Below are positions 1,318-56,055 of a DNA stretch of 64,000 nt, in pieces. The position numbers were made by a program, and so were the translations under genes. Source of the stretch: Neocallimastix lanati (nom. inval.) (Eukaryota > Neocallimastigomycota > Neocallimastigomycetes > Neocallimastigales > Neocallimastigaceae); NCBI GenBank assembly GCA_016946835.1, contig JACVTC010000033.1, positions 848,001 through 912,000 of the forward strand, in the 5' to 3' direction. The notes under the pieces are model-generated. The model was given only the letters and a program-made list of their open reading frames with translations. It had not been told where the DNA came from and searched no databases. Numbering within the stretch: the stretch's first letter is position 1; every line of letters begins with the position of its first letter.

Positions 1318-2715
1318 AAAATAAAATAAAATAAAATAAATAGTTGAAATATAAATATAAAGTACAGATTGAATAAAATAAAATAAATAGTTGAAATATA
1401 AATATGAAGTACAGGATGAATAAAATAAAATTAATAGTTGAAATATAAATATAAAGTACAGATTGAATAAAATAAAATAAATAGTTGAAATAAAAATATG
1501 AAGTACAGATTGAATAAAATAAAATAAAATAAAATAAAATAAAATAAAAATAATATAAATAGTTGAAATATAAATATGAAGTACAGAATGAATAAAATAA
1601 AATAAATAGTTGAAATATAAATATGAAGTACAGATTGAATAAAATAAAATAAATAGTTGAAATATAAATATGAAGTACAGAATGAATAAAATAAAATAAA
1701 TAGTTGAAATATAAATATAAAGTACAGATTGAATAAAATAAATAGTTGAAATATAAATATGAAGTACAGAATGAATAAAATAAAATAAATAGTTGGAATA
1801 TAAATATAAAGTACAGATTGAATAAAATAAAATAAATAGTTGAAATATAAATATAAAGTACAGATTGAATAAAATAAATAGTTGAAATATAAATATGAAG
1901 TACAGAATGAATAAAATAAAATAAATAGTTGAAATATAAATATAAAGTACAGATTGAATAAAATAAAATAAATAGTTGAAATATAAATATAAAGTACAGG
2001 ATGAATAAAATAAAATAAATAGTTGAAATATAAATATGAAGTACAGAATGAATAAAATAAAATAAATAGTTGAAATATAAATATAAAGTACAGATTGAAT
2101 AAAATAAAATAAATTGTTGAAATATAAATATGAAGTACAGAATGAATAAAATAAAATAAATAGTTGAAATATAAATATGAAATACAGAATGAATAAAATA
2201 AAATAAATAGTTGAAATATAAATATAAAGTACAGATTGAATAAAATAAAATAAATAGTTGAAATATAAATATGAAATACAGAATGAATAAAATAAAATAA
2301 ATAGTTGAAATATAAATATGAAGTACAGATTGAATAAAATAAAATAAATAGTTGAAATATAAATATGAAATACAGAATGAATAAAATAAAATAAATAGTT
2401 GAAATATAAATATGAAATACAGAATGAATAAAATAAAATAAATAGTTGAAATATAAATATGAAGTACAGATTGAATAAAATAAAATAAAATAAAATAAAA
2501 TAAAATAAAATAAAATAAAATAAAATAAAATAAAATAAAATAAAATAAAATAAAATAAAATAAAATAAAATAAAATAAAATAAAATAAAATAAAATAAAA
2601 TAAAATAAAATAAAATAAATAGTGAAGTAATATAAAGGAATAAAGTATTAATAAAAATAAAATAAAATAAAATAAAATAAAATAAAATAAAATAAAATAA
2701 AATAAAATAAAAAAA
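1318..2715. repeat. Minisatellite array 1, about 46-bp unit, ending in (AAAAT)n
   Basis: About two dozen tandem copies of a unit built from a run of AAAAT pentamers, then AGTTGAAATATAAATAT, then (G/A)AAGTACAGA(T/A)TG. Copies differ by single substitutions (GATTG or GAATG; TATGAA or TATAAA) and by the number of AAAAT pentamers. From about 2473 the array becomes a pure AAAAT pentamer run, broken near 2617-2660 by a different short segment (see the dispersed repeat at 49.1 kb). The array is open on the minus strand only because its unit lacks stops in that frame. The periodic peptide is not a gene. Confidence 0.9.
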
Positions 2716-4165
2716 TTATTTGAATTATAATAAAAATACAAGTATTAATAAAAATAAAATAAAATAAAACAAAATAAATATTTGAATTATAATAAAAATA
2801 CAAGTACTAATAAAATAAAATAAATATGTGAATTATAATAAATTGCAAGTATCAATCGAAATAAAATAAAATAAAATAAAATAAAATAAATATGCAGTGA
2901 AATAATAATATATAATATGATAAAATAAAATAAATAAGATATTGATATGAAATTAATATAAAAACTGAATTTAGCAACAAATAAATTATATAATAAATAA
3001 ATGATATAGCATATTCATATATATTAACATGAATTTTATTATAATTTTTACAGTATTTTAAATTAATGTAAATTATTATATTTCCATATAATAAACAAAC
3101 TTTATAATTAGAAAATAGTATAAAAAGAAATATTAAATATTATTATTAAATAATTAAATGAATAAATTAATAAATAAATAAAAATTTTCAGAATATGGCG
3201 AATGTAAATCATTATTTTTTTTGAAATATATCACATTTTAAATATTTTTAATAATTATTTTTTCAAAGAAATTATATGTGCCATTTTATTTTAATATTTA
3301 AATATTATATTCATAAATAAAAATTTATAAAAAAATAATATAAGCCACATTCCGAAATGAAAATTTATGTAAAAATATTTAAAGCCACATTCCGAAACGC
3401 ACCACCCCCAAAATTACATCTTTAATCATGTGATTGTTCTATGAATTAATGCACAAAGATAGATGTTACACAACATAAAAATATAATAATAAAATATTAA
3501 TATAAGAATATAATATTGATAATTAATATAAGAATATAAAAATAAAAATATAATATTAATAATATAAAAATATAAAATAAAATGTGATTATTTTAACAGA
3601 AATCCTAATTCTTATTATTAATATTACTATTACAAATAATTATATATTATTATTATTATTATTATAAATTATTATTATTATCTTTATTATTATTTAAAAT
3701 ATATATATGTATATATTCCTATTGATTAATGATAAATGTAAGAAATAAAAATCATTTATTTATTTACTCTTCATATAATAAAAATACCGAAAAAAATACT
3801 ATAGAAAAAAAACTTTGTAATTAATACTTTGTAAATGAATACACAATAAATGTTTAGGGTATAACAAAAAAAATATAATAAAAACTAAAATCAAAAATAC
3901 GTAATAATTAAAATATCAATTAAAATATCAATAAGTGTAAATATTTATTAACGGAAGAAAGTTTTGTTAATAGATACATAAACATATTTTATAATAATTA
4001 ATATTAAACGTAATATTAATAAAAAAAAATTATATGAATTAATAAATGAATAAAAAAAAATTTTTTATTCTAATATTAATTTCCATGTGATTCATAATTC
4101 ACAGAACAATATAAATAATAAAACTAATATTTATATATATACTTTTAATTGAAATATTATATTTT
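2716..4165. other. Intergenic DNA between the two inverted minisatellite arrays
   Basis: AT-rich spacer with no gene. It contains a GC-richer island (about 3335-3425) in which the motif AGCCACATTCCGAAA occurs twice (3342-3356 and 3383-3397), followed by a CACCACCCCC stretch. A related motif occurs near 43302. The rest is A/T simple sequence. Confidence 0.55.
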
Positions 4166-4672
4166 GTTAAAGATTAATCTTTTTATTTTATTTTATTTTA
4201 TTTTATTCAATCTGTACTTTATATTCGTATTTCAACTATTTATTTTATCTTATTTTATTCAATCTGTATTTTATATTCATATTCTACTATTTATTTTATT
4301 TTATTTTATTTTATTTTATTCAATCTGTACTTCATATTTATATTCTACTATTTATTTTATTTTATTTTATTTTATTTTATTTTATTTTATTTTATTTTAT
4401 TTTATTTTATTTTATTTTATTTTATTTTATTTTATTTTATTTTATTCAATCTGTACTTTATATTCGTATTTCAACTATTTATCTTATCTTATTTTATTCA
4501 ATCTGTATTTTATATTCATATTCTACTATTTATTTTATTTTATTTTATTTTATTTTATTCTATTTTATTTTATTTTATTTTATTTTATTTTATTTTATTT
4601 TTTATTTTATTTTATTCAATCTGTAATTTATATTTAATATTCTACTATTTATTTTATTTTATTTTATTTTAA
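4166..4672. repeat. Minisatellite array 2, inverted copy of array 1 unit
   Basis: Several copies of CAATCTGTACTTTATATT / CGTATTTCAACTATTTATTT, separated by long TTTTA pentamer runs. This is the reverse complement of the unit of the array at 1.3-2.7 kb. A slightly diverged sub-unit has TTCATATTCTACTATTTATT. The reading frame across it is a by-product of the repeat. Confidence 0.85.
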
Positions 4673-5846
4673 TTTATTTTTTAAAAAAATTATATTAAAA
4701 TTTAAACAATATAATGTTAGAAAAAAAAAGTTTTTTTTTTTTATATTTTATATTAAATTATACATAAATTAATAATTTTTTAATTAATATTAACACATAT
4801 GGGAAGTATTAAAAAAATAATATTCAAGTTATAGAATATATTATTTTCATAATAATAACAATAATAAAAATATTTGCAATAAAAAAAATAACAAAATAAC
4901 GATGGAAATAACAATAAAAGTAACAATATAAATAATGATAATAAAAATAATAACAATATAAATTGATAATTATGTTATCATATATTTATAATGTAATTAA
5001 AATGTACTTTTATTTAAGAATTTAATTTATATAGTTTAAATTTATGTTTTCCTTTTAAATATTTTGTGTAAGTTGTATATGGTCACAAATGAATTCACGT
5101 GATATATATATATACCATCTATCATTGCATGTCCTATTGTTAACAGTAATACTAAATGTATTATAATATTAAATAAATAAACAATAAATACATCAATTAA
5201 CATTTACAATAATAAAAAATAAAAAATATCATTTAAGAAAATAGAACTATATGAAATATAATATATAGGGATTAATTATAAAAATAATAATATTACATTT
5301 ATGTAAAAAAAAAAGAAGTGTCTAATGTTTTTATTACATATAATTGAGATATATAATTTTTTATTTTATAAATAAAAATTAAAAAAATAAAGAAATAAAG
5401 TTTTAATTAAGAATATATAAATATTAAAAATTAATAATAATAAATAATAGAATATTAAATAATAGAATATTAAATAATAGAATAATATTAAATAAATATA
5501 ACTAATAAAATTAAAATTTTAAAAATTATTAATAAAAATAATTAATAATAATAATAATTAATAATAATAATAATTAATAATAATTAATAATACTACTAAT
5601 AATAATTAATAATAATTAATAATACTACTAATAATAATTAATAATAATAATAATAATAACAACAATTTTTTAAAAATAAATAATAATATATAATTAATAT
5701 AATTAAATAATTAAATAATTAAATAATTAAATAGTAAATAATAAAAATAAATTAATATTAGAATAATGAAAGAATTTTAATAATTTAATAATGTAATAAA
5801 TAATAAATTAATATTACAAATAAAAGAATGAAGAAAGGTTTCTTTA

Positions 5847-5880
<34 letters not shown>

Positions 5881-6919
5881 ACTTTTCATTATTAAAAATT
5901 AATAATGAATAATGATATAAATAAAAGTAATGATGATAGATTAGATATAACAATAATAATTTAATTTTTATAATTATTAAATTAATGTAATACTATTAAA
6001 TAATAAGTTGATGTCAACTTTTTATTTAGAAGTATTAAATTTATGTCATTTATGTATTTAATATATTTTAATTATTATTATTATTATTTTTTTTTTACTT
6101 CCATTATATCTAATGTTAATAATTCATAATAATAATATTATAATCATAAAATGCTAATATATATCATTTTATTTTATTTATTAGATATAATAATAAAATA
6201 AAAATAAAAATAAAAATTAAAAAAGGTAATTAAAAGTAAAAACAAACAAACAAACAACCAAATAAACAAACAAACAAGAAAAAATATTAAAAAATTAAAC
6301 TAAAATTTTTATATTAATGGGAAATAATTATGATCATTTTTTTTTTTTCTTCATCTCCCGATCAATTTTTGAAAAGGCAATTATTTGTAAAAGGTTAAAA
6401 ATTATATTATATTATTATAATAAAATATTTCTAGAAATTAAATAAATAAAACGAATAAAAAAAAATATTATAAATAATTATAAAATGAAATGAATTATTT
6501 ATTTATTATTATTTTTTTTTTCATCTTTTATTAATAGATACTATAATTTAAAAACAAAAATTATTTTTTTTTATATAAATTATTAATCTAAAATTTATTA
6601 GAATAATTTTTATTAAAATCTACGATTTTCATTAATTAAAATATAACTGTAAAAGTAATTTTTTTTTTTTCATTAAAAAAAAATAATTATATACTATTAC
6701 AATTATATACATTAAATGAATTAAATGGTCATTAATTGCATTTAATGATAAAGGTGGATCTAAAATATTAAGAATTATACATTTTTTAAGTTTATGCAAC
6801 AAAAATGTTTTTTTTTTTTTTTCTTAAATAAATATGTTTGCCATATCAACTATAATAATTGATATATAAATATAATATTTTTTTTTAAAAAAATAAAAAT
6901 CATAAAATTAATAAAGTTT

Positions 6920-18509: not shown

Positions 18510-18609
18510 GTAAGTATTATGATTTTATAAATAATTAAATAAAAAAATATATATTTTAGATTTATATTTATTAATAATATGTTATTTTTATTTAATAATT
18601 TAATTATAG
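18510..18609 (+). other. Probable 5'UTR intron of STE12
   Basis: A textbook fungal donor GTAAGTATT at 18510 and an acceptor TTTAATTATAG ending at 18609 lie directly before ATGATGTCAAAT. If spliced, it removes the in-frame ATG at 18579, so translation would begin at 18612 (or 18615). This decides the start used for STE12. Confidence 0.6.
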
Positions 18610-18611
18610 AA

Positions 18612-20399
18612 ATGATGTCAAATCAAAGTAATATAAATATGCTCGAAGCAGTAAATCAATTAAGATACTTTTTAAGTACAGCCCATTTAAATTGGGCTGT
18701 AAACCAAACTTTAAAACGTTTTCAATTGCCAAATGGTGAAACAATATCATGTGTTTACTGGAAAAATACTTTCTATATTACCGGAACTGATATTGTAAGA
18801 TCCCTCGTCTTTCGTTTTCATGCTTACGGCAGGCCCGTTAAGAACATAAAGAAGTTTGAAGAGGGTATCTTTTCAGATTTAAGAAATTTAAAACCAGGAG
18901 TTGATGCTGTGTTAGAAGAACCAAGATCAGAATTCTTAGAAATGTTATATAAGAATAATTGTATTAGAACTCAAAAGAAGCAAAAAGTTTTCTTTTGGTT
19001 TTCAGTACCTCATGATCGTTTATTCTTAGATGCTTTAGAACGTGATCACAAGAGAGAATCCGAAGGTAAGGAACCATCTACTGTTGCATTACAAAGCGCA
19101 CCACTCCTTGAAGCCATGGCAATGAACCCACAAACAAAAATTCCAGATTCATTAAAACAATATACTGCTTCCAGTAATAATACTCTTCCAACTCAACAAA
19201 ATGTAAATGCTAATAATAATAATTATTATATAAATACAAATGAAAAATCACAATTACAATCAATAAATACTAATATAAATGTTAGTCAAGATAAGACTGT
19301 TAATATGAATTATCCAATGTTACAAACACAAGTAGTTCAAATGGTACAACCATCAGTATATCAACAACAAGTTTACGCTCCAGTACAAACTAACAATACT
19401 CAATATGTTATTACTCAACCACAAACTCAAGTTATGACACCAAATTCCGCTGTTCCAGTTGAACAAATTACTACTCCAACTATGAATAACACTCAACTTG
19501 TTCAAGTTGTTTCAAATAATCAACAAGTTATTTATCAGCAACAACCAACTCAAATTATTACTACACAAGTTGCTCCAATCACCACTTATGCTCAAGAAGG
19601 GCTGGGCCAATCTGAAATTAAGAATGGTGAGTTAGTTAATGTTGCTACTCCAACTATGATTAATGCTCCAATTGTTTACACTACTGTTAGTCCCACCGCT
19701 CAATCTTCTCCTGTATCATTAGATGAAGAAGAAATTGTTTTTGGTGAAGAAGATGATAAAGAAGATTATAAATATGTTTGTGATGTTAAGGGATGTGGAA
19801 GAAAATTTAAGCGTGCTGAAAACTTAAGAAGACACCAACGTTGTCATAAAGGAGATTCTGGATATGGTAAGGAAATGCTTCATCGTCAAGCTAGTGTTAG
19901 TAAAATTCAAACTCAATATGTTATAAAAACTCAAGGACCATACACTCAACAAAATGTTAGTTATAATCCAACTACTGGAATTGTAACTCCAATTTCAGCT
20001 AATCCAGCTACTCAGATGCCATCTCCACCAACAAGTGATATTAGTTATGTTGTTAAACAAGACTTAAGTAATGTTATTAAACCAGTTTCTCCAAGTGAAA
20101 CTTATGTTAGTCCAGTTAGCCAACAAACTTCTCCAATTATTGTTACAACCGCTGGAGCTATTTATACAAATGATATAGCTGTAACCTCATCAGGTCAAAC
20201 TGTAAATGGAAGTATATTATTCCCATCTATTGATGAGAATCAAACTACATATGTTCAAACTTCAGCTATAGTTCCAAATGATTCTACTAGTGTTTGTCAA
20301 ATACCATCACCACCACTTCAATTTCAACCAAATTACACTGAAGTAACTTATCAAACTCAAAATCAACCAGTATATACAACAGTAACTCCAATCTACTAA
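18612..20399 (+). CDS. STE12: Ste12-type transcription factor (STE domain plus one C2H2 finger)
   Basis: A 595-residue protein counted from Met at 18612. Residues about 10-145 are a clear Ste12 homeodomain-like DNA-binding region: LEAVNQLRYFLSTAHLNW, the ISCVYWKNTFYITGTDIVRSL-type core, then KKQKVFFWFSVPHDRLFLDALERD. This fungal family acts at the end of MAPK cascades in mating and filamentous or invasive growth, in the nucleus. The middle is Gln/Asn/Thr-rich and probably disordered or activating. A C2H2 finger lies at 390-412 (C390, C395, H408, H412), preceded by an acidic stretch. Non-yeast Ste12 proteins usually carry two adjacent fingers, but here the second is absent and replaced by GDSGYGKEM and Gln-rich sequence. 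The next gene-like sequence downstream is a LINE fragment. The coding exon is uninterrupted. Identification is firm, but the exact start is inferred from the 5'UTR intron. Confidence 0.93.
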   Translation: MMSNQSNINMLEAVNQLRYFLSTAHLNWAVNQTLKRFQLPNGETISCVYWKNTFYITGTDIVRSLVFRFHAYGRPVKNIKKFEEGIFSDLRNLKPGVDAVLEEPRSEFLEMLYKNNCIRTQKKQKVFFWFSVPHDRLFLDALERDHKRESEGKEPSTVALQSAPLLEAMAMNPQTKIPDSLKQYTASSNNTLPTQQNVNANNNNYYINTNEKSQLQSINTNINVSQDKTVNMNYPMLQTQVVQMVQPSVYQQQVYAPVQTNNTQYVITQPQTQVMTPNSAVPVEQITTPTMNNTQLVQVVSNNQQVIYQQQPTQIITTQVAPITTYAQEGLGQSEIKNGELVNVATPTMINAPIVYTTVSPTAQSSPVSLDEEEIVFGEEDDKEDYKYVCDVKGCGRKFKRAENLRRHQRCHKGDSGYGKEMLHRQASVSKIQTQYVIKTQGPYTQQNVSYNPTTGIVTPISANPATQMPSPPTSDISYVVKQDLSNVIKPVSPSETYVSPVSQQTSPIIVTTAGAIYTNDIAVTSSGQTVNGSILFPSIDENQTTYVQTSAIVPNDSTSVCQIPSPPLQFQPNYTEVTYQTQNQPVYTTVTPIY

Positions 20400-22084: not shown

Positions 22085-23795
22085 TTATTTCTTCAGAATA
22101 TGATTTTTACCGGAAGCAATAAGATAGATGGGCTGAATATTATAAAGATCTAGCTTTTGACCTCAGTCTTAATCGTAACTAAGGAATGAATGCTATTCCT
22201 AAAGTGTCTAGTTATATTTATCTTGGTATTCCTTTTTCTGATGATCTCTTACTAGAACACATTATATCTCACATGCATTTTAAAGTTAGAAAATCCCTTC
22301 TTTCATTTACACATTTCTTCTCAAATAAACTTATCCCTATTGCATACAAGAAAAAAGTTCTTCAATCCTTTGTTATTAGTAAAGTAATTTATTATTCTCC
22401 TTTACTTGGTTCAAACAAATCTAGAACGGCCAGAATTCAAACATTAATTAATACTGGTCTATTTTGGTGTATCGGCTCCTTCTCTAAAAATGGTAAAACA
22501 AGTTCAGAAGACAATGACTATATTAGGCATAATTCTACTATGAGTACTTATGCTTTATCTCGAGATCTAAGCATTCCTCCTATTGCTAGTGTCTGCGCAG
22601 CCTTACAGATTAAATCATTTGCAAAATGGAGTAAATCAAACTGTATTATAAAGGATCTTATTAAATCTATTCCCAAAATGCATTATTATTCCTGGACTAA
22701 AGAATCTAGAACACTGTATAAAAAAATCAAAAAATATAAATGTGAAAAATATGACGATATTTTAGAACGTTACTGGAAATCAGTTGCCAAATTTCAAGGT
22801 ATTAAAGGTCAAAATTACGATTGTAATAAGTTCTCAAACAATAAAGCTATAATTATGCTTAGCTTAAAATATCCCCCAATTCAACTTAGGGTTTTCGTGG
22901 ATTATACGTTTACGCTGTGGCTATAAATACAATACTACTATTGCTATTAGAATGGGTAGAGTTTCAGAAGATTGTCCCAAGTCTTGCCCCTGTTGTGGCG
23001 AAGATAAACAATCTTTTGAACATTGGATTTTTAAATGCGATGCTATTGCATCTTTTAGATGGAATTCTTTAAATTTCATCGATGATCTCTATGTTTTATT
23101 CCTTAGGAAGATTAGAGTGTTTAATCCTCTTTCTTCCTATGACTCTATTTCTGATTTTGAAGATTATATCAATCATTATATATACTTGTTCCTTCTTGGT
23201 GGGACTTTAGTTTTAAATGAGCTACATTTTGATAGTGGGGAATAGAGACAATTGAATGAACTACTTTTCAAAGGTTCATCTGGATCACCTGTTCCAAAAA
23301 TTGTGGGCTTGGCGGAATTCTTAACAAGTGCAATACCTATCATAAGTAGTTCATTTGTGCTATTATTTGATAGGTATTGTAAAATACCAAACTTATCCAA
23401 GAGCGTCGACGTCGTACTGATAAGGTATAATGATAATACAGGATCAGCATCTATTTCTACGAAGGATGAATCTTGCCCTAGTAGTTCAATAAATGATGAA
23501 TCCGGGGAGAGTTTAGTGGACACCATACTATCTCTTTTAAAAGATGTTACTTCTAGGTTTTATTTTATTTTTTTTTTTTTTTTGTTATTTGTTAGGAAGG
23601 GAAAAATTCCCGCATAGTACAACTTGCCGAAATACATAGTATTTTCGAGCTTTTTTTTTTTTTTTTTTTTTTTTTTATTTTTTAAATTTTTTATTTTTAA
23701 TTTCAAATGTACTTTTCACCTACATGTATTTTTTAAAATAAAATTTAATAAAGTTTTGGAAGTGTATTCTCTTCCCTGTCTAAAAAAAAAAAAAA
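22085..23795 (+). mobile_element. LINE retrotransposon copy 1, 5'-truncated
   Basis: The 3' third of a non-LTR retrotransposon, starting after the catalytic RT motifs. The segment from 22186 (VSSYIYLGIPFSDDLLLEHI, SKVIYYSPLLGSNKSRTARI) matches the post-RT region of copy 2 at 27.86-28.1 kb (YTYLGIPF, SKVSYFTPLLGSNKARTNNT). It continues, after a frameshift near 22900, into RLRCGYKYNTTIAIRMG and a zinc-knuckle CPCCGEDKQSFEHWIFKC (C-x2-C-x7-H-x4-C). An in-frame TAG lies at 23243. Then comes a domain with IVGLAEFLTSAIPI and NLSKSVDV that is shared by all three larger copies. The 3'UTR has an ACATGTATTTTTT block and an AATAAAG motif, and ends in a poly(A) at about 23780-23796. The copy is dead by truncation, frameshift and stop. 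The 5' boundary is approximate. Confidence 0.85.
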
Positions 23796-23796
23796 A

Positions 23797-24334
23797 AATA
23801 AAATAACATTATGCGCAATGGTAATGTTATTGGTAAAATTTTTCTGGTGAACATTCACTGCGGAATATAACGGTGCATTTTTGGAACATTGTTAAATAAG
23901 TTACACCCAAGAATAAGTAATACATTTTCATTGTATTTCTATTTTTATGTAGTATTACTATTCTCATGTAAGAATCTATTGTATTCAATTGTATTTCAAC
24001 TATATATTTCATGTATCACGTTGTAAGAGATTGATTCACTCTAAATCTTGTAGTAATTTATTTAACTCTTTACTGATTTTGTGCCATTTTTTATTTCATC
24101 AATTCAATCTTAGTCATTAAATACTTTATGATATTCAATTTAAATAATATACTGAAAAAAGTGCTAAATCAAATTATTTTTCAATCATTCAACAAACTAC
24201 TAATTATCGAAATTATTTACTCCAAAAAGATATAAAATTATTACAATTCTCATTATACTCAAGACTTTATAATAAAAATGGACTTTTATTTTTATTTTTT
24301 TTAGTTTATTAATTTTTAGTTTTTTATTACTATT
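23797..24334 (+). other. Probable 5'UTR/promoter region of LINE copy 2
   Basis: About 540 bp, richer in G and C than ordinary intergenic DNA here, directly between the poly(A) of copy 1 and the first ATG of copy 2. It contains no gene. Position and composition suggest the untranslated leader of copy 2, but no second copy is available in the window for comparison. Confidence 0.4.
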
Positions 24335-25681
24335 ATGGAAATCCAATATATAAGAAATAAGAATTTCATTCTAAGAGGTTCAAGGTGCCACGGTATTCCA
24401 ATGGAGAATACGAAACTACTCTTTATCCGCGGACTTCGATCTTGGCCAGAAATCAAAATGAGAAGACATTTAGAGAAAACTCTGAATGAATTATATAATA
24501 AGGTTTTATCAGTTAAACGTATTGCTAATTTTAATGATGCATTCTTTAAAATTAAAATAGTAGGTAATGAAGAAGAAATAACATCTATTACCGATTGTAT
24601 TGTTAATAGTTTCAAACGTGCTTCAATTAATGTTATTAATTGTAGCAAGAGGAATCATAAATACAGTTTTTCTTCTCTCAAAAGGAAACATTTTGCCTTA
24701 TCAGAAAAAGTGAATTCATCATATAATATCAACTTATTCACTACTTTAAATTCAAATGCAAATTCAAGTCAAAATTCAAATTCTAGTTCAAATACAGATT
24801 CATGTTCAAGTTCAAGTACAAGTTCAAGTACAAGCTCAAGTTCAAGTTCAGGTACAAGTTCAAGTACAAGCTCAAGTTCAAGTTTAAGTACAAGCTCAAG
24901 TTCAAGTTCAAGTACAAGTTCAAGTACTAGTTCAAGCTCAAGTTCAAGTACAAGCTCAAGTATAAGTTCAAGTACAAGTACAAGTTCAAGTTCAAGTTCA
25001 AGTTCAAGTTCAAGTTCAAGTTCAAGTTCAAGTTCAAGTTCAAGTTCAAGTTCAAGTTCAAGTTCAAGTTCAAGTTCAAGTTCAAGTTCAAGTTCAAGTT
25101 CAAGTTCAAGTACAAGTTCAAGTACAAGTTCAAGTACAAGTTCAAGTTCAATTTCAAATTTATGTTTAAATTCAGTTTCAAGTTCAGATTCAAATTCAAA
25201 TTCCAGTTCAATCAATTATAATAATTCCAATAATATTAATAACACTCATATTAATAATAATACAGTTAAAGAATTTTCTCTATGTGTCAGTTGGAATACT
25301 AATGGATGGAACTTTGATAAAAAAGACAGTGTTGAATTCTTTATTTCAATGTACAAACCACTTTTCTTATGCTTTCAAGAAACAGGAAATGGTTCAGGTT
25401 CTAGCAGTAAATATCCTTGTCGAGTTTCATTAAAAAACTATAAACATTTCTTCAAAAAAGCTAATAATGAAATTCCCGGTAAAAGAGGACTTTATATAGG
25501 TTTTCATAATTCTTGTCAAGCCTCTCTTGAAAACAACACTTATGAGTATATTATTTCTTTGTATACTTATAATTTTTGGAATTTCACTAAATGTTCTATT
25601 GGTAATGTGTACGTACCTCATAGTGGCCATAACCTTCATGCTAGAGCTGCTAGAATTGAAATTTTGACGTGGTTAAAATAG
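24335..25681 (+). pseudogene. LINE copy 2: N-terminal domain, serine linker and first half of APE endonuclease
   Basis: The ORF starts at an ATG (MEIQYIRNKNFILRGSRCHG). Residues 1-120 form a folded-looking domain with LFIRGLRSWPEIKMRRHLEK and an alternating FFKIKIVGNEEEIT segment. It could be an RRM-like nucleic-acid-binding fold such as LINE ORF1 products carry, but this is an inference. Residues about 146-289 are a nearly pure Ser/Thr run encoded by AGTTCA/AGTACA hexamers. From about residue 313 the endonuclease begins: CVSWNTNGWN (metal-site Asn), FLCFQETG (catalytic Glu) and NVYVPHSG. The stop at 25679 is a decay product, because the endonuclease continues in another frame downstream (GDFNLS at 25710, SDIDHAI, then SDHKPL at 25905). 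Confidence 0.8.
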
Positions 25682-27511
25682 TCACTCTTCTCATCCTTCA
25701 ATGTTGATTGGTGATTTTAATTTATCTACTGAGAAATTAGGTAATTTGCTCTCTAAATTTAGTAATTGGAAAATTCTTCCCTTATGGATCTCCCCAATTT
25801 CATGGAGTAGAGGTAATAGAGAATCTGATATAGATCATGCGATTGTCAATGATCATATGTTAGATTTACTTTCATAAGTTACTTTTGTTGACTTTCCCCC
25901 CATTTCGGATCATAAACCTTTATTAATAAAAGGTAAATGTTTTTCATCAGTTAATTCAGATAATTCTTTCTCTCTGCCTAAAAAGACAGTTAAATGGGAT
26001 AGATTAAAATGTATAAATGAAAAAGAATCAATTTTTGACAACAACTATTTTAGTGTATTAGAGGAAGTGATTCCAGATCCTAATATTAGTATTGATGATA
26101 TTTCTAAGAAATTTATTTCAACTTCATTCAATATTGCTAAGGAACTAAATATCACGTCAATATCAGATGTTAGAAAATCTTTTTTTCATATGTCACAGAA
26201 TATATTTAATTTGCAAAAACTCAAAATGAAATTATATAAAACCATTAAAAGAAGAGGTTTTTATCATAATTTAGATGAATTTGAAGAATTAATTGAAAAA
26301 TATTATAGAATGTGCAAATTATTCATCATATGTGTAATATTTATAGGAAAACTGAATACTAACATTGGATCAATACAGGATGTGAATATATGAAATCTCA
26401 TAACCCAAAGAAAGCTTGGAAATGGCTTAAAACAACAGTAAAGGACAAAAATGGTAAACTAGCTACTTCTACTAAAGAACAGTTAGAAGTATGGCACAAT
26501 CACTATAAAAAACTTACATCAAGCCATTCTGATATCAATAATGCATTAATCGAATGGTCTAATAAATTTTCCAATGGTACAATTAGGTATACGAGACACA
26601 ATGAATGGGATATAAATCAAAACATCAGTATTGAAGAAATTAAAGAAGCAATTTTAGCTACTCCAAATTATAAAGCTTCAGGCCCGGATGGAATTCCTAT
26701 TGAATTTTATAAAGCTTTAATTTCTCCGGATGGCGAAAATTCAATAAATAATTCTTCTTCTGGTTTAAATTGTTTACAGAAGATATACTCAAGAATTTGG
26801 AATGGAGAATTTCCTACCATATGGAATGAAGCAAGTATTATATCTATTCCTATAAAAGGTGATAATCTATCTGATTGTGACAATTATCGAGGTATCTCTC
26901 TGATTAACAATGGTATAAAACTCATTTCGAAAATAGTCTCCAAAAGAATTTCGGAATATGGACTTAAAAATAATTTTATTAGGCCAGAGCAATTTGGATT
27001 TCGTACTAAAGAAGAATGTGTTAGTTTATTTATTTCAATTCGAGAAATTTGTCAAAGGCGTAAAAATGATAATAAAGAAACTTACCTTGCTTTTCTAGAT
27101 TTAAAAAAGGCATATGATTCTGTTCCAATAGGTAATATTTTATATAAATTAGATGCTTTAGGTATTAGAGGTAAATGTTATTAATTTATAAAAAATCTAT
27201 ATTTGACTTCCAAAGCCAGTGTTAAAATTGATGATCAATATTCGGAATCTTTTAATATTATGAAAGGAGTTAGACAAGGTTGTCCACTATCACCAATCTA
27301 TTTATTAATGACATTTTTAATGATTTTTCAGAACTTGGAATTCCTTTAGGCGAATCTAGATGTTGTGGTGGACTCTTTGCAGATGATATTGTTCTATGCG
27401 CACCGTCAAGAACTAAGTTAAAAAAAAAAAAAAATGCTTAAGAAGGTAAATGAATGGGCTAAATTTAATATGATGAATTTTGGAATTAACAAGTGTGCAA
27501 CGATGGTGATT
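25682..27511 (+). pseudogene. LINE copy 2: rest of endonuclease and reverse transcriptase
   Basis: The second half of the endonuclease (IGDFNLS, SDIDHAIVNDH, ISDHKPLLIKG) is followed by a linker, then the reverse transcriptase. RT blocks, with approximate positions: GPDGIPIEFYKAL (26681), NYRGISLINNGIKLISKIVS (26881), RPEQFGFR (26982), AFLDLKKAYDSVP (27090, catalytic Asp), RQGCPLSP (27272), FADDIVLCAP (27376, catalytic Asp pair). The frame is lost near 26392 and between about 27180 and 27300, and a homopolymer of A at 27420-27433 also disturbs it. The RT is therefore not functional. All signature motifs remain readable, which points to fairly recent decay. Confidence 0.85.
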
Positions 27512-30086: not shown

Positions 30087-33000
30087 TTATTGCATAACCA
30101 TTTCCATTTCATTTAATTGATCATAGACATCATTTGACATACGTGATTGTATTGTACCAGTGAAAACAATGATCATTCTAGCCATTTTCTTAAAAGTATT
30201 CATTTGAGTTAATTGTTCCTTAGAAGAATTTTCGGACATGAAAACTTCTTTTTGATTTTTAATCATGCGCCAAAGACCATAAATACAACGCATTGTGGTA
30301 GTTAAAAGCTCTGGGAAAAGACGAACAATATTCTTATCTAGATTTTGGAATTCTTCCGCTTTCATCATTACTTTAGTCATATCACCTTCTAATGGAATAA
30401 GATCAAGCTCTTTCATAATACTCAATGCTTCGGCTAAACTATTTCTTTGATAGGCATCCATGAAACGAGTTAATTTAATAAGAATAGCACATGTTTTCTG
30501 TTTTGATTCCAAGCGTCCAAAATTGGATGGTTGTTTAACATAGTTTTGCATGATATTTTGAGCTAAGATAACTGGATGATCCTGAGTAAGAGTGTATTGG
30601 TGACTTGCAAGAGCATCACTTAATTGTTTATTAAGGATATCAACGACGGTTTCGTAGCTTTCAGAAAGATTATAGAGATATACAGCATCAGCTAAACGAC
30701 CTTCATTTTCACAACTACGAGCAGTTGGTTTAATTAAATATTTAATAAAGTGAGAGTGATCATGAATATGAATAAGGTTTTTATACTGTTCTATTTCACT
30801 TAAAGATTGAATACCACCATCAGAATTCACTTTACCAAAGAAGTGTGGGATAGATTCTGATTTTTGAAGAAGAACTAATTCTTGAATATATTTATAGGTT
30901 AATTGAGTGTATTTCTTGGCAATAGTTTTTTCTTCTTCTGAAGAATTTTCTTGAGCTTTTGGAATGAAATCATTCATTTCGCTATTATCGTCTTCTTTTC
31001 CATCTTGATCCAACTCAATACCATATAGACAAATAAAGTAAAGATAGTGAAGGGCAACATCTGGATACTGAGTTGAAAGATTATTGGAATATTGATGAAT
31101 TAATCTAGCAAAGTTGAATTTAGAAATAATACTAGTAATATCATTATCGGTAGTACCTTCTTTTTCAAAACCATATGCATTAGATTTATTTTTATTTGTT
31201 ATAACGTTAAGAGAACTAATGAATGGATTATTTTTTGAAGATTTTGCTAAACTATAACTATTTAATTTTGATCCAAGATTAAAACTGGCACTTTTAATTG
31301 TGGGAGCTGTATATGATGAATCAAAAGAAGAAGAAGTAGCGATAACTGACTTAGTCTTTTTAGCTCTTGTTTCATTAACAAGATATTCAATTGAATATAC
31401 TGAATTTGTAATTCTTAGAAGACCGTAATATGCAAAAGCAATTGCGAAATGAACAGCTTCAACATGATATTGATCTCTAGAGAATAAGAAGTCAACAACA
31501 TTTTCAAACTTTCCACAAATGATTAAAACCATATTCCATATATTTTCTTGATTGAAGTAATTTGGTTCATATTTTAATAAGTTAGTTACCATTTGGTCAT
31601 AGGTATAAGTATCATTATCAAATATTATACTTGGGAAAGTAGTAGAAATAGCTGAGGTTGTAGTACTTATTCTTTGATTATTACCATTTTGAACAAGAGT
31701 TAAATGAACCCATAAATAATCTTCAACTGAAGGAATAACAATTTGATCTGGAATATTTTTAAAGTTAATATCACATCTTCCAATAATTTTATAAAGACAA
31801 TGCTTAAATGGATCACCCTTTATGGTATTTTGATCAATTGAAGAACGAATTCTTTCATTCCAATCATTCTTAATTTCATCACGGTATTTTTTGTTTAATG
31901 TGAATTTGTTATCTATCCATATCTTTATATATTTTATAAACATAAGATCATTCTTATGACTGAAAAGCTTATCGTCAATATCATTAATATAATAAATTGC
32001 TTCAGCAAAATGACCAGAACGAATTAAATAGAAAATACAGGACCATATAGGGAATGAGTTAATTAATTCAAGACTTTGATCCCATTCCCCATATTTTTTT
32101 AATCTAAAGGATATGAATAAAGAAATTGTATCTATAACGGATTGCTTTGAATCATTATTAAATATTTTTCCAGTATTATCTTTAACTTCCTTTTGAATCC
32201 ATTCCCAGAATGTATCTTCAAAATATTTTTTTGATCCATTAATAATTAAAGAATTGAATTCGTTCATATTTGTATCTGGAACATCCTTAGAAGTAGCTCT
32301 TATATTAGTAAATTGCTTTTCTTTTATTAAACTTTCATCTATTTTATTACCAATAGTAGATTCTTTAAAAATATAAGTTAATAATCTCCAAGAATCACTT
32401 ACAGATTGAATAGATGAATTAATTCTTGCTATCTTCAAGCTACATTCATAGAATAAATTGAAAACCTTTGCTGATTTTAATTCATTTCTAATTTGATTAA
32501 TTTTTTTAACAACATTAGCATACTCTTTTACTTGAATTTGCTTTGAACTATCATTGGCCAATTCTTTATTTTATTGTTATTCAAATAATAATAAATTTAA
32601 ATTAATAATTTTATTAATGTTTTCAATTTTTACACTTATATATTTGTAAATTTATAAACCTAAAAATATTACCTGTAAATGGAACTTGTGTGAACATTAA
32701 TGTATTAGCTGTATTATGTAAATCATCTACATATTAATATATATTTTTGAATAAATTTAAATTTAAAATAATGAGGAAAATAGAAACAAAATATTAATAT
32801 TTCATATATATATATATATATATTAATTCAAAGTTTTTAAAAATTTTTAAAATAAATAAAAAAATAATTATTTTTACAAAAAAATCAAATAAATAATTAA
32901 ATAATATAAGCTTTGTAAATTTTTATGTTCTATATATATTTGGGTAAATTAAAATATTGATAATTTATTGTATACACCATTTATTTTAAAATTTAAAAAT

Positions 33001-35151: not shown

Positions 35152-36228
35152 ATGGAAAACTATGAAGAATATTTAGAAACTACTCCAATTAAGGAAATCG
35201 AACTCGATTCTTTAGTTGTTCTTCAAATAGTTAAGCACTGTCAGGAATCATTACCAGCTACTGTTACTGGTCAAATTCTTGGTATTGATATTAAGGACAC
35301 ACTAAAGATTACTTATAGTTTCCCATTCTCTAGTTCAAGTGCTGATAATATGGAAGATCAAAATGCTGGTGCTGACTATCAATTAAGAATGTTAACTAAT
35401 TTAAGAAATATGAATTTTGATGTTAACACTGTTGGTTGGTACAGAACTGCCGACAATAATCTTTGGGATGCTACTTTTATTGAAAATCAATACAATTATC
35501 AAGCAGCTATTCAACAATCTGTTGTTATTGTTTACGATCCAGTTCGTTCATCTCAAGGTAACATTAATCTTCATGCTTACAGACTTACTGATGAATTTAT
35601 GGAAGTTTATAAAGAAAAAGAATTTGATGTAAAAACCTATATGAACAAGAAATTAAATTCTTCTAAGATTTTCGAAAATATTCCAATTAAAATTAAGAAT
35701 AACATTTATGATGACTGTTTAATTAGTCAATATGATGAACTTAATACTTTACCAGTTGATGCTAATTCTGTTCTTACTCAACCATCTCCAAACTTCTTAA
35801 ATAAAAATATTGATTTATTAGTTCCAGAAACTCAATATGATGAAGCTCTTGACTTAGATTTCGAAGATTACCTTATTAAAAAGCTTGAAATATTGAACTT
35901 AGAAATTGATAAGAACAACAGAAACCAAACTACTTTCAACAATTGGTACAAACTTGTTCAGTCTGAACTTAATAAAATTAAATCTGCTAATCAAATGAAG
36001 ATTAAGGAAAACAAAGAACTTGCAAACTTAGGTCAACCACCAAAGTACACTGAAGAAGATCTTCAATTAACTTCACCAAACCTTGAAAAGCTTTACTCTA
36101 ATGGTTCCTTTGAACTTGATATTCCATTAGTTTCTAGAAGAATGGAAATGCACTGTAAACAAATAAAGCAATTTGCTGGTCCAAGTATGACTAAAATGTT
36201 CATGGTTAAAGCTTTACAACGCAAGTAA
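35152..36228 (+). CDS. EIF3H: Eukaryotic translation initiation factor 3 subunit H
   Basis: A single-exon gene encoding 358 residues. The N-terminal MPN domain (about 15-150) reads IELDSLVVLQIVKHCQESLP, TGQILGIDI, then VGWYRTADNNLWDATFIENQ and VVIVYDPVRSSQGNINLHAY. The JAMM metal-binding signature (E, HxH, D) is not kept, as expected for eIF3h, which is a non-catalytic MPN subunit. The C-terminal half is helical with the conserved DLVPETQYDEALDLDFEDYL-like segment and a final helix ending TKMFMVKALQRK. The protein is part of the eIF3 octamer core, which recruits mRNA and the ternary complex to the 40S subunit. Length is close to the usual 340-380. The coding sequence uses more C and G at third positions than its surroundings, which suggests high expression. 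Confidence 0.95.
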   Translation: MENYEEYLETTPIKEIELDSLVVLQIVKHCQESLPATVTGQILGIDIKDTLKITYSFPFSSSSADNMEDQNAGADYQLRMLTNLRNMNFDVNTVGWYRTADNNLWDATFIENQYNYQAAIQQSVVIVYDPVRSSQGNINLHAYRLTDEFMEVYKEKEFDVKTYMNKKLNSSKIFENIPIKIKNNIYDDCLISQYDELNTLPVDANSVLTQPSPNFLNKNIDLLVPETQYDEALDLDFEDYLIKKLEILNLEIDKNNRNQTTFNNWYKLVQSELNKIKSANQMKIKENKELANLGQPPKYTEEDLQLTSPNLEKLYSNGSFELDIPLVSRRMEMHCKQIKQFAGPSMTKMFMVKALQRK

Positions 36229-37652: not shown

Positions 37653-40614
37653 TAAACTTTAATTAAAAAAAAAAAAAAGAAATATTAAAATAAAACTTAC
37701 TAAGATATCAATCCAAGGACCAATATTTTCGGATCTTTGTGGATATGGACGACTAAAAAAATTTATTTTTTATTTGAAATTATTAAATTAATAAATTTCA
37801 TAATTATTTATTTAATCAATTTATTCACTAATTAATTTATTAATCATATAATTTTATTATACTATTATTATTATTATCATTATTTATTTATTTACCGGTG
37901 ATTAATACACATTTTGATAGCATCAGATCTTAATTCAATCCAATTATTAATTAAAGAAGTTACAGAACCAAGTGGCCAAACAATTGAGAACAAAGATATA
38001 TAACCAAATTGAACAACCATTTCAGAGTAATCATCCTTGACTTTAAATTAAATATAAAAATATTAAATAATTAATATAAATACAGAGATAATACATAAAA
38101 TTGAATAATTATATAATGTATCCTATATATGTATTTATGTTATTGCAATTCTGTATTAATTATTAAAATAAAAATAATTTTACCATCATAAATTGGAAGT
38201 TCCATTTCTTTTTCAATTTGCTTAATAACTGGGTCAGTACTATTTTCTTTATCATCATTATCTTTTTTTTTATCATCAAAAGCAATGCCAGTAATTTTTC
38301 TACTAATAAATGGAATAATAGTTTCTTGGAATAGATTTAATATTTGAGCATTTAACATAAGATAAACAAAGTTACCAACTAATCTTTCTGGACCTGGAGA
38401 TGGAATTTCAGAAATAAGAGAACCTAATGGAGTTAACTCTAAGATTTCAATAAATTGCTTAGAAAATGGAATATAAGCCCAACCAACAACAATCAATGAC
38501 ATGAAAGAATTTAAGAAATAGAAAACGAAAACTTTCTCGGCGTAACGATTATCATATTCAATCTTTGTGGAATAATTTTCAAAATCATTAAATTTTTTAG
38601 CAAAGCCTAAATAAATTTTGTTTAAGAATGGAATAAAAGTACTATAAATTATAGTTGGAATGTAACACTATATTTTAATTAACATAAAGATGTAATAGTT
38701 ATTTTTTAAAACATTGAATATACAATAAATAAAGTATTTTATATTTTAGTTTTAAATTATTTTCTTTTTATTATAAATATTTATATTTGGTATATATAAA
38801 CGCTTGATCTTACCATGAAAAACTTGAATGGACCTTTGTAAAGATCACGAACCCAGATTTCAATACTAATAACACAGACGAAAACACAAACAGTTAAGAC
38901 AGCACATAAAATAATAAATGGATACGTTAAACAAACACGCTTAACCCATCTCTTCCAATTTGGATAGTATGGAACATATTCATCAGTAACCTTATCTTTT
39001 TCCATTCTTTCAGCTCTAAATTCTGGTCTAATCTTTTCAGTGTTTGTACAATTATTGACATTCCATAAAATAGCAAGTTGTTCAGCATGACGGTTCCACA
39101 AAATAATAAAGAATATACCCCATAAAACCTTAATTCATATTTATTATTATTATTATTATATTATTATTATTATTATATTAATTATTATTGTTTATTATTA
39201 TTTATTATTATTATTCATTATTAATTTTTATTATTTTTTATTCTTTATTATTATTATTATTGTTGTTTTCTGACTAATTTAATTAATATTTAATTATCTA
39301 TTTATTCTTATATTAAATATTTTGAGAAATTATGAAGATGAATTAATAAAAATTAATATTTTAAAACAAATTTTCACTCACAATGAAAATACCATAAACA
39401 ATAGAGAATCTTTTATCAAAGAAAAATGATAATAAACCAACAATTGCTGGTAATATTAAAGACATAAAATATTTTTGTACAAAAGCAAAGTAATAGGCAA
39501 CCTAAAATATAAACATAATAATAACAATATATAATAATAATGAAATTATTATTATTATTATTATCAATCAATTAGAATTTATTATTTTTTAATACATTAG
39601 ATATTTTAATATAAATATTTTTAAAAAAATTGAAAGAAAAAAAAACATACTCTTGAACCAAAATGATTACGAATATCAGTCATATCTTCAGTAGAAAGAG
39701 CCCACTTTTTAGACCAGTATTTAATCCATTTCTATTTATATAAAATATTATATGTTATAAAAAATATTATCATGAAATACTATACATTACATTCATTTAA
39801 ACTTAATAAAGAAAATTAATATACATACATTATTTAATTCCTTGTTATGAAGGGTAAAGAAACTTTCTAAATACATACCACCAGTTTGGTGCCAACCGCC
39901 TTCATTTTCAGTTGAAATACCAACACCACCTTCCCAAGTTGGACGAGTTAATAAATTGTAAATAATGTATAAACGGTCAGAAGTAGCTAATTTTGAAGCA
40001 ATATCTTTTTGAACTTCTGGATTATTAATATCTAAATTGTCGAAATCTGCATTAGCAACACCAACACCATTTAAATATTCTTGAATACTATTTATTATTA
40101 TTAATATTATTGAAATTGTTAATATAATCATTATTATAGATGTTATTGTTGATTATAATAAATTTATTTTAATATGTAATTTATTTAATATTTTCTAAAT
40201 TTATAAAAAACATATATATAATTATACATATAAAAATAATTAAATCATATAATATAAATTATCAAATTACCGGAATTTAAGGTATTCAACAGCTAATACA
40301 TCATCTGGACAATGAACACACAAAGCAAGATAACCATCTTTTAAGGATTTAACTTGGAATTCGAGACCAACTGATAATAACATTTTACATAAATTTTTCC
40401 AATAATATAAAACATATATTTCTCTTTGGTCAAGATTTTTTTCACTTGCAGTGATTTCTTTAATTGCTTTAACAACTTCTTCTTTTTCAATAATGTCCTT
40501 TGATGGTATAACATTTTTTTTAGTATTAAAGATCATAACATAATCAAAGTCATTATCTTTAGAAGATAAAGCTTCCTTTGCAAGAGGACTTTTTAGAGAA
40601 TTCACTTCTTCCAT
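37186..40614 (-). CDS. Anoctamin/TMEM16 family membrane protein, likely Ca2+-dependent scramblase
   Basis: Nine exons with consistent phases: 40614-40271, 40087-39829, 39731-39651, 39501-39382, 39128-38814, 38667-38184, 38040-37896, 37752-37701 and 37590-37186 (734 residues). Translation starts at MEEVNSL; a more upstream ATG (40656) would add a Lys-rich stretch. The cytosolic N domain is followed by about ten membrane segments, e.g. YFMSLILPAIVGLLSFFF and YPFIILCAVLTVCVFVCVIS. The calcium-site residues of fungal TMEM16 scramblases are all present with correct spacing: N484/E488 (LNLFQE), D538/E541 (DDYSEM) and E570/D574 (IELRSD). The family moves phospholipids across membranes or tethers ER to plasma membrane (yeast Ist2). 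The tail has no long Ist2-like linker. It is intact. The choice between channel and scramblase cannot be made from sequence. Confidence 0.92.
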
Positions 40615-53018: not shown

Positions 53019-56000
53019 ATGTCTATAGAAGAAGAACCCAGTACTCTTAATAAAAACGTAAAAAGTGAAGTAGAAGATAATCAAATTGAAGGTAAAGTAA
53101 ATATAAAGCAAATAAAATCAAGTATTTTATCTCCACCAGATACGCCACAAATTAATACAATTAAAAAAGGTAAAGCAATATTATATAATCATAATTAATT
53201 ATTTAATTTAAATCATATTAATAATATTTTTTCTTTATTATTTATTTTTTTTTTTTTAAAAAAACTAAAATATTAAAATTTTTATTTTTATGAAAATAAA
53301 TTAAAATTGAAAAGTTGAAAATGAAACTAAAATAGAAAATAAAAATGATGAAAGTATAGATGAAGAAAAAGAAAATTCTAATGAAAACATAAATTTGGTT
53401 AAAGAAGACCTCAAAATTGTAGATAATAAAATAAATAGTGAAAATGAAAAAAACGCATTAATTAAAAATGTTAATTCGATAAATTATGATGATAAAAATG
53501 AAATTAATGAAAATAGTAGGATAATAATTTCAAATTCTCAAAATCAAAATGTAAAATCAAATGAAAATTCAATAAATAACGGTGATAATATTAAAAATAA
53601 TGAAATTGTTAAAAAACAGAATGAAAATACAGTAATAGAGAATAATAATAAATTAAGTGATGTAATATCTGAAAATGAGAAAATTAGTTCAGAAAAGGAA
53701 AATCCATTAATAAGTACTGATAATTACTTGAAAGAAACAAAAATTAAAATAGATAAAGTAGATGAAATAAATAAACAAAATACAAAAATAGATGTAATAA
53801 ATAAGGAAAATAAGAAAGAGCATGAAAAATCTCATAAAATGACTAGAAGTAATATTAATATTTGTATAAATATAACACACTCATTACAATATCATTCAAG
53901 TGCTATTCCATTTTTAAACCCTGTAGATCCAGAACTTTTAAATATACCGGACTATTTTACTGTGATTAAACATCCTATGGATTTATCTACAATTATGAAA
54001 AAAGTTAAAGGAAATAAATATAGTGATATAAATGATTATATTAGTGATGTAGAATTAATGTTTAATAATTGTTTCACTTATAATCCACCAACTAATCCTG
54101 TTCATATTGCAGGATTAGCATTAAGAGAATATTTTATTGAACAATTAAGAAAATTATCTCCAGAAGTTCAAGCTTTATTAAAGATATTAACAAGGGAAGA
54201 TAATGGTGAATATTTATATGCTAATGGTAAGAGAGCAAAAAGGCAAATTAAAGCGGTTCATCATTTGGAACCAGAGTTGCATATACCAAAAAAAATGAAA
54301 GTTGTACATAAAAGTAACATAGAATCGATAAAGGAAGATAAAATTTCAATTGAAAATAAAAAAATAGAGATTGAAAATATTCCTAATGATAATAAAATCG
54401 TATTTACAAAACAAAATTCATTCGAAAAGGCAAATACCATAAAACCCATTAAAATACAGGAAGAACAAATTAATAGGAAAAATAATGAAAATAAAACGAC
54501 AATAAAAAAATTAATTTCAAATTCACGTGCAAAGAGAATTGTAGATTTAGTACAAGATAAATATAATAAAAACGAACAAATATTAAGAGAGGATGATGAT
54601 GAAGAGGATGAGATTGAAGAAGAGCAAGAAACAGAAGATGATAGTGAAATGATAGAAAATGAAGAGACTACTGAAGAGGAGGAAGTTGACGATTCAAATA
54701 ATTTGAGTCGTAAAACAAAATCCATTATAAGGGCAAGCCAAAAAGTTATATCAAGAATGAAATCAAAAAATACCCATACGAAAATTAGAAATGTTTCAGC
54801 TCATGCTAATAATATAAATAAAAGACCAACAAAATCAAAACTATTAAAAAGTATATCTAAGGTACAAACCTTATCGTCTTTACCAGTAGATCAAGTATAT
54901 CAAGGAAATTCATCTGATATAGTTGAAATGCAAATTAATACTTTAACAATGTGCTTGCAAAAAGTTACGAAACAATTAGAGCTTTTGCAGGTTCAATCAA
55001 AAGCTAGAAAATTAAAGAAAAAAGCAAAACGTTTAGCAAAATCATTAAATATGGAAGATTATGATCTTCAATCGGATTCAGACAGTGTTGAAAATTTATT
55101 ATCTCAAACTTCTTTACTAACGAATAATGCTAATAAAATATTAAAAAGAAAATCAAAAGTGAAAATGTTAAGTAAAAAAGCAAAAGTGAATAAAATAAAA
55201 AATCAAAATAGACGTATTAATAATGAAAATGATGAAGACGAAGAAGAATATGATGAAGGAGAAGAAATATATGAAGATGAAAATTCAAGAATTGTAGATA
55301 AAAAAAAAGAAAAAAATGTTATAAATGAAAAGCAAATAAAAAAAGAAGTTAAACGTCAAAGACAAAAGAATACAAAACAAGAAACAAAGGGTAAAAAAAG
55401 AGTACCAAAAGGTAGTCAGGAAAATTCATATGATATTAAAAGAGTTTGTGAGTATTGTGGTGATACAGATACCCCAATGTGGAGAAGAGGTCCAAATGGA
55501 AAAGGTACACTATGTAATAAATGTGGTGTAAAATGGAAAGGTGGAAAAATCTATCAAGGTGAAGAAATACCAATGAAAAGAAATAAGAATATTACTAATG
55601 AATCAGTAGATAGTCCAGTAATACCACCACCACCTAAAAAAGAAAGGAAAAGAGCTAAAACCAAGGATAAAAAGAAGGAAACAACAAAAGTTAATAAATC
55701 AAAACAACAAAAGGTAACTGAAATAACTTATAATCAGAAGAAAGAACTTAGTGAGATGATAAATTATTTGTCCGAAGAAAAGATTAGCGGTGTAGTTGAT
55801 ATTATTAAAAGTTCTATTCCAGATATAAAAGATACACAAGAAGAGATTGAATTAGATATAGAAACAATTAATCCAGCTACATTATATAAATTATATAATT
55901 ATGTTAAGAAAGTTTCAAAACCAAAAAATGGTAAAAAAAATCAAAATAAGAATGAGGATACTAGTAGTGGTGAGTCAAGTGGTGAATCAAGTGAATCAGA

Positions 56001-56055
56001 AGATGAATCAAGTGATAGTGATAGTGATTCAAATCAATATATGACTGGACGTTAA
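53019..56055 (+). CDS. BET-family bromodomain protein with an embedded GATA zinc finger
   Basis: Two exons, 53019-53169 and 53315-56055 (GTAAAG donor, AAAAG acceptor), give 963 residues. Residues 1-230 are Asn/Lys/Glu-rich and disordered. A bromodomain lies at about 235-335 ([28 protein letters not shown], and [10 protein letters not shown] with the acetyl-lysine-reading Asn307). It is followed by an acidic stretch (about 477-510) and a basic helical region with [20 protein letters not shown]. At 762-787 there is a GATA-type finger: C-x2-[19 protein letters not shown]. Residues about 855-915 form an extra-terminal (NET) domain: [39 protein letters not shown]. The tail ends in a Ser/Glu/Asp SEED-like run. 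BET proteins read acetylated histones and recruit transcription factors via NET. Typical fungal BET proteins have two bromodomains and no GATA finger. The continuous frame makes a gene-model artefact unlikely. Confidence 0.92.

What the first reader, a model, noticed from the sequence alone, without database searches (positions are those of the whole stretch)
53019..56055. BET bromodomain protein fused to a GATA zinc finger
One continuous frame holds a bromodomain (Asn307 kept), a GATA-type C-x2-C...C-x2-C finger with [18 protein letters not shown] (762-787), a NET domain and a SEED-like acidic tail. BET proteins normally find chromatin through bromodomains alone, and fungal ones carry two. 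Here one bromodomain is missing and a sequence-specific DNA-binding finger sits before NET. That would let a histone-acetylation reader choose GATA sites directly, in effect a reader and transcription factor in one chain. I know of no described family with this order.
Basis: partly seen in the sequence, partly recalled or inferred. Interest (0 to 1): 0.8.

Follow-up and report, generated by a model that had tools for sequence, protein, structure and literature searches.

The report
Chytrid BET protein with GATA finger
An anaerobic gut fungus carries a gene for a protein that should read acetylated chromatin with one bromodomain and also bears a GATA-type zinc finger, and the same combination recurs in chytrid fungi of several orders, so it is an old, conserved protein type rather than a one-off fusion.

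Summary
Window 53019-56055(+) encodes one 963-aa protein (GT-AG intron 53170-53314) with one bromodomain, a GATA-type X18 zinc finger, a NET (BET) domain and an acidic serine-rich tail; all three domains exceed Pfam cut-offs. It is not a one-off: of 205 held proteins, 39 have bromodomain, finger (decayed in one) and NET, all in this order, none with two complete bromodomains. Named hosts are Neocallimastigomycota and six orders of Chytridiomycota. Of 121 NET proteins without the finger, 90 have two or more bromodomains; the 31 with one are mostly plant GTEs. The finger is the best-conserved domain in 11 of 11 comparisons. Trees favour an old single-bromodomain BET branch with a BD1-like domain, but an AU test does not reject BD2. 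'Reader plus GATA-site transcription factor' is unproven: the finger lacks the tail of classic GATA fingers in this genome, reads CN[K/R]C in 39 of 41, and is modelled, at moderate confidence, with strands where classic fingers have a helix. DNA or nucleosome contact is likely, GATA-site choice only possible. Eight searches of an open-licence library found no description.

The parts
53019..53169 (+). exon 1, codes residues 1-50 plus one base; holds the [11 protein letters not shown] motif (53124-53156)
53170..53314 (+). intron, GTAAAG...GAAAAG, 145 bases
   Evidence: spliced product matches P0002 at 962 of 963 residues
53315..56055 (+). exon 2 with stop codon, residues 51-963
53866..54108 (+). 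bromodomain, residues 235-315 (Asn307, Tyr306, Tyr264 kept; WPF shelf reads IPF)
   Evidence: fold match
54229..54276 (+). conserved basic stretch ending in EPE after the bromodomain, residues 356-371
   Evidence: alignments, (R360, E369, P370 conserved)
54916..55041 (+). predicted long helix followed by a Lys-rich run, residues 585-626, in the place of BET motif B (dimerisation helix; name and role recalled)
   Evidence: helix 583-627
55447..55551 (+). GATA-type zinc finger C-X2-C-X18-C-X2-C plus GVKWKGGKI, residues 762-796
55723..55911 (+). NET (BET) domain, residues 854-916
55951..56052 (+). acidic Ser-rich SEED-like tail, residues 930-963

Best explanation
This is a conserved BET paralogue of Chytridiomycota and Neocallimastigomycota: one bromodomain, motif-B helix, GATA-type X18 finger, NET, acidic tail. 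Most likely mechanism: the bromodomain binds acetylated histone tails, the motif-B helix dimerises the chain, and the finger does the job of the lost second bromodomain as second chromatin anchor, touching DNA or the nucleosome. NET then recruits transcription and remodelling factors, as in other BET proteins. Shown here: the domains, their order, the single bromodomain, the conservation, and two-bromodomain BET loci in the same genome. Inferred: acetyl-lysine binding, dimerisation, finger contact with DNA or nucleosome, NET recruitment. The first two rivals below are sharper forms of the finger step, so the odds overlap.
Against: The AU test does not reject grouping the single bromodomains with BD2 (p 0.397), and their own unity has support of only 74/0. 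In the bromodomain tree two non-fungal BD1 rows (P0058, P0193) fall among the BD2s, so the BD1/BD2 split is not clean. Both trees rest on few columns (87 and 63), and the NET bootstrap had not settled. No functional data exist here. The WPF-shelf Trp is absent in all five gut-fungus rows of A1, so binding may be altered. Quaeritorhiza P0134 keeps only a decayed finger and Irineochytrium P0146 has none, so some lineages dispense with it.
Confidence: 0.55

Rival explanations
1. A true reader-transcription factor: the finger binds GATA-core sites with sequence specificity and steers the acetyl reader to chosen promoters.
For: Four Cys, TPMWRRGP and Asn785 kept; the best PDB matches are GATA-3, GATA-1 and plant GATA18 fingers. 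The finger is the best-conserved domain.
Against: The tail after the finger is not conserved as basic; 12 of the 14 CNACGL-type fingers read in this genome have RP in their tail (the other two end at a stop in the frame), the BET fingers do not (by eye). CN[K/R]C instead of CNAC in 39 of 41. AlphaFold gives strands, not a helix, after CNKC, at moderate confidence.
Confidence: 0.25
2. The finger is a protein-protein or nucleosome-surface module with little DNA sequence choice, appended to a chromatin protein.
For: The same finger subgroup is followed by a NET-like stretch in another protein of this genome (C5/C55), suggesting a chromatin-linked module. Missing tail as above.
Against: The WRRGP and CN.CG core is of the DNA-binding kind. 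The one PDB match to a chromatin-remodelling-complex subunit, 23cp_S, is not significant (E 0.54).
Confidence: 0.3
3. Gene-model artefact: two neighbouring genes read as one.
For: No RNA data were available here. One Orpsp1 model (P0009) lacks finger and NET.
Against: Bromodomain, finger and NET lie in one stop-free frame, and the same order recurs in 38 other held proteins.
Confidence: 0.02

Closest known systems
Fungal and animal BET proteins (Bdf1, BRD2/3/4/T)
   Same: Bromodomain, predicted motif-B helix, NET, acidic Ser-rich tail
   Different: One bromodomain instead of two; GATA-type finger between the motif-B helix and NET
Plant GTE proteins and Drosophila tBRD-2/tBRD-3 (single-bromodomain BETs; PMC4177214 and PMC10451976, passages read)
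   Same: One bromodomain plus NET
   Different: No finger described in the passages read ('zinc finger' and 'GATA' occur 0 times in PMC10451976); of the 31 held NET proteins with one bromodomain and no finger match, 24 are named plant proteins
GATA transcription factors (GATA-1/3, AreA, plant GATA18)
   Same: C-X2-C...C-X2-C finger, WR, CN.CG
   Different: CN[K/R]C, no conserved basic tail, strands predicted after the last Cys; joined to a bromodomain and NET

Membership tests
BET family | bromodomain over the family cut-off | tested here: met
   72.3 bits against 21.7
BET family | NET/ET domain over the family cut-off | tested here: met
   76.9 bits against 24.5
BET family (animal and fungal type) | two bromodomains | tested here: not met
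   one in P0002; one in each of the 39 held proteins with all three domains, counting two split ones as one
BET family | SEED-like acidic Ser-rich C-terminus | tested here: met
   by inspection of the alignment; no profile was used
BET family | binds acetylated histones | not testable with these tools
   Asn307 and Tyr306 kept; WPF Trp replaced by Ile
GATA zinc finger | four-Cys finger over Pfam cut-off | tested here: met
   46.8 bits against 26.8
GATA transcription factor | basic tail C-terminal of the finger | tested here: inconclusive
   by eye: tail is [14 protein letters not shown] here and GKIMGDNK.P in Spizellomyces and Geranomyces; not a binding test
GATA transcription factor | recognition helix from the third Cys on | tested here: inconclusive
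   two models give strands, pLDDT about 57-73
GATA transcription factor | binds HGATAR sites | not testable with these tools
   needs a binding assay

The most novel reading that the evidence does not exclude
An ancient chytrid lineage of BET proteins exchanged its second acetyl reader for a sequence-reading zinc finger, so that one dimeric chain reads acetylation state and DNA sequence together: a hybrid of BET co-activator and GATA transcription factor kept across Chytridiomycota and Neocallimastigomycota, with a modified GATA code set by Met at loop position 7 (37 of 41 fingers) and Lys/Arg in CN[K/R]C (39 of 41).
Probability: 0.22. Interest if true: 0.75.

Novelty: new variant of a known kind. 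Interest (0 to 1): 0.52.

Why it matters
BET proteins are described as finding chromatin through bromodomains and partners. A conserved branch with its own DNA-binding-type finger would be a natural case in which acetyl reading and a DNA or nucleosome contact sit in one chain, and lets one ask directly what the second bromodomain does and what can replace it. It also gives a marker for BET evolution in early fungi.

Tried and rejected
The search for related loci in genome contigs gave 59 pattern matches but no relative; that collection is bacterial and archaeal. NCBIfam gave nothing useful. The 50 rows shown by Foldseek and by VIA-align are all bromodomains and say nothing on finger or NET; GATA structures not appearing there is no evidence. 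The idea that the finger sits exactly where BD2 was is not right: it lies after the motif-B helix. The gain of the finger was not dated. Absence of the architecture outside chytrids and gut fungi rests on three searches that each scored only about 8000 candidates, and of the 177 hits only 120 were listed, so it is not proof. Unnamed hits (e.g. P0137, P0155, P0162, P0195) have the finger too, and their hosts are unknown. Ten weaker own-genome GATA hits were not read.

The 1997 AreA loop-residue-7 paper could not be read; only its title in a reference list was seen, and its Leu/Val/Met details are recalled. Also recalled: the GATA-1 helix and tail, the name and role of motif B, NET partner recruitment. 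Paper searches: ten in all; eight aimed at this architecture or at unusual BETs, 53 at AreA and 61 at SNF5-GATA. None showed a description, but the library holds open-licence papers only. Passages were read of PMC4246892, PMC4177214, PMC10451976 and PMC11878562; the other listed papers were seen as listings only. Tree rows: 92 bromodomains and 54 NETs were chosen from the held proteins and the own genome, not all of them; partial and near-duplicate rows were left out.

Full report
What is there. The gene runs 53019-56055 on the + strand. Exon 1 (53019-53169) and exon 2 (53315-56055) are parted by a 145-base GT-AG intron and give 963 residues. The product differs at one residue from a deposited hypothetical protein of Neocallimastix sp. 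'constans', P0002, which places the window in an anaerobic gut fungus; its assembly has 199 Mb in 762 contigs. Pfam finds a bromodomain (residues 235-315), a GATA finger (762-792) and a BET/NET domain (854-916), all far over their cut-offs. Between bromodomain and finger lie a basic stretch ending in EPE and a long predicted helix followed by a Lys-rich run, in the place of BET motif B. The tail is acidic and Ser-rich.

Is it one protein? Bromodomain, finger and NET share one stop-free frame. Exon 1 carries [11 protein letters not shown], found in the same place in P0003, P0007 (Piromyces finnis) and P0009 (Orpsp1). A similar SPP[S/T] motif stands near the N-terminus in all seven chytrid rows of alignment A1, but not in the three P0010-type gut-fungus rows. 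No RNA data were available.

Is it unique? No. Three protein searches (one search listed 120 of its 177 hits) gave 204 proteins, 205 with the exon-1 fragment. Scored with three HMMs built from these sequences, 39 have bromodomain, finger and NET. All 39 keep the order and none has two complete bromodomains; P0158 and P0162 show one domain in two largely complementary pieces. P0134, counted among the 39, has only a decayed finger (17 bits), and Pfam does not see it. Two more have bromodomain and finger without NET (P0152, P0195), and two have finger and NET without bromodomain (P0008, P0130). Of 121 NET proteins without the finger, 88 have two bromodomains, two have three and 31 have one; 24 of these 31 are named plant proteins, six are unnamed and one is Irineochytrium P0146. 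Hosts with names are gut fungi and chytrids. Look-ups place them in Neocallimastigales and in six chytrid orders: Spizellomycetales, Rhizophlyctidales, Rhizophydiales, Chytridiales, Cladochytriales and Polychytriales. Boothiomyces P0044, Homolaphlyctis P0039 and Chytriomyces P0140 gave two-bromodomain BETs without finger; whether they also own a finger-bearing one was not tested.

History. In the window's genome two other loci, C110 and C113, have bromodomain, finger and NET in line, the NET in another frame, presumably past an intron. C445 holds a decayed copy with several stops and one zinc Cys lost. C18, C223 and C20 have two bromodomains and a NET in pieces. A NET tree sets 30 two-bromodomain BETs apart from the finger-bearing and single-bromodomain ones at 91/91, with few columns and an unsettled bootstrap. 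A bromodomain tree groups the single bromodomains with fungal BD1 at 100/99*, and their length of 84 (22 of 24) is that of BD1 (22 of 32), not the 87 of BD2 (28 of 34). Against this, an AU test does not reject joining them to BD2 (p 0.397), their unity as one clade has support of only 74/0, and two non-fungal BD1 rows fall among the BD2s. So one old paralogue that lost one bromodomain, probably BD2, and gained a finger is favoured but not proven.

The finger. It is the most conserved domain in 11 of 11 comparisons: against Spizellomyces P0021 26 of 33 residues are equal, bromodomain 45 of 84, NET 33 of 63. It keeps four Cys, WRRGP and CN.CG. Among 41 fingers with a bromodomain, 39 read CN[K/R]C, and 37 have Met at loop position 7 of an 18-residue loop. 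Of 20 own-genome GATA loci read (30 hits), 14 have CNACGL, 12 with a 17-residue and two with an 18-residue loop, and 12 of the 14 show RP in the tail; the other two end at a stop in the frame. The other six have GVKWKxGK[I/L]: three BETs, C5, C55 and C24. Both AlphaFold models, of this protein and of Thoreauomyces P0024, place strands at KW[K/R] and KI, with pLDDT of only about 57-73. So the finger is a separate subgroup, and GATA-site recognition cannot simply be taken over from GATA-1 or AreA.

Mechanism. The most likely reading is a two-anchor chromatin reader: bromodomain on acetylated tails, finger on DNA or nucleosome, NET as recruiting face, dimerisation by motif B. Only the anatomy and its conservation are shown.

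Novelty. Single-bromodomain BETs are known in plants and Drosophila (PMC4177214, PMC10451976, passages read). A BET with a GATA-type finger was not found in eight searches of an open-licence library, which is not proof of absence. The protein database already marks the three Pfam domains on these proteins, so the architecture is visible but, as far as these searches show, not discussed. I rate it a new variant of a known kind.

Noticed in passing
L045 (G000 C5:518000-527500) ORF 2-5953 and L046 (C55): A large low-complexity protein ends in a GVKWKRGKIL-type finger followed by a NET-like stretch (Pfam BET 18.6 bits, below cut-off; hhalign probability 94.7; 23.1 bits against a best of 7.4 in 2000 shuffles): a second pairing of this finger type with NET.
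   Followed up: partly
L039 (G000 C445:1962000-1967500), minus strand: Decayed copy of the window gene with several stops and one zinc Cys changed to Tyr.
   Followed up: partly
P0134 Quaeritorhiza haematococci, residues 533-566: Single-bromodomain BET whose finger keeps four Cys but lost the TP.W core: finger decay in one chytrid.
   Followed up: partly
53124-53156 (residues 36-46) and N-termini of chytrid homologues: Short SPP[S/D/T] motif near the N-terminus, in P0002/P0007 and all seven chytrid rows of A1 but not in the three P0010-type rows; possibly a phosphorylation or docking motif.
   Followed up: no
P0158, P0162, P0144 bromodomains: Extra residues inside the bromodomain split or lengthen it; unread introns or true inserts.
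   Followed up: no
P0124 Thoreauomyces humboldtii, residues 446-589: Two NET matches in a row after the finger.
   Followed up: no
18543-20399 (+): STE12-like transcription factor with a C2H2 match below cut-off.
   Followed up: no
22183-27184 (+): Pieces that look like a broken retrotransposon: reverse transcriptase domain in 26363-27184; a long poly-Ser stretch in 24320-25681.
   Followed up: no
30087-32570 (-), 35152-36228 (+), 38140-38667 (-): Nup93/Nic96, eIF3h and an anoctamin piece: ordinary genes.
   Followed up: no
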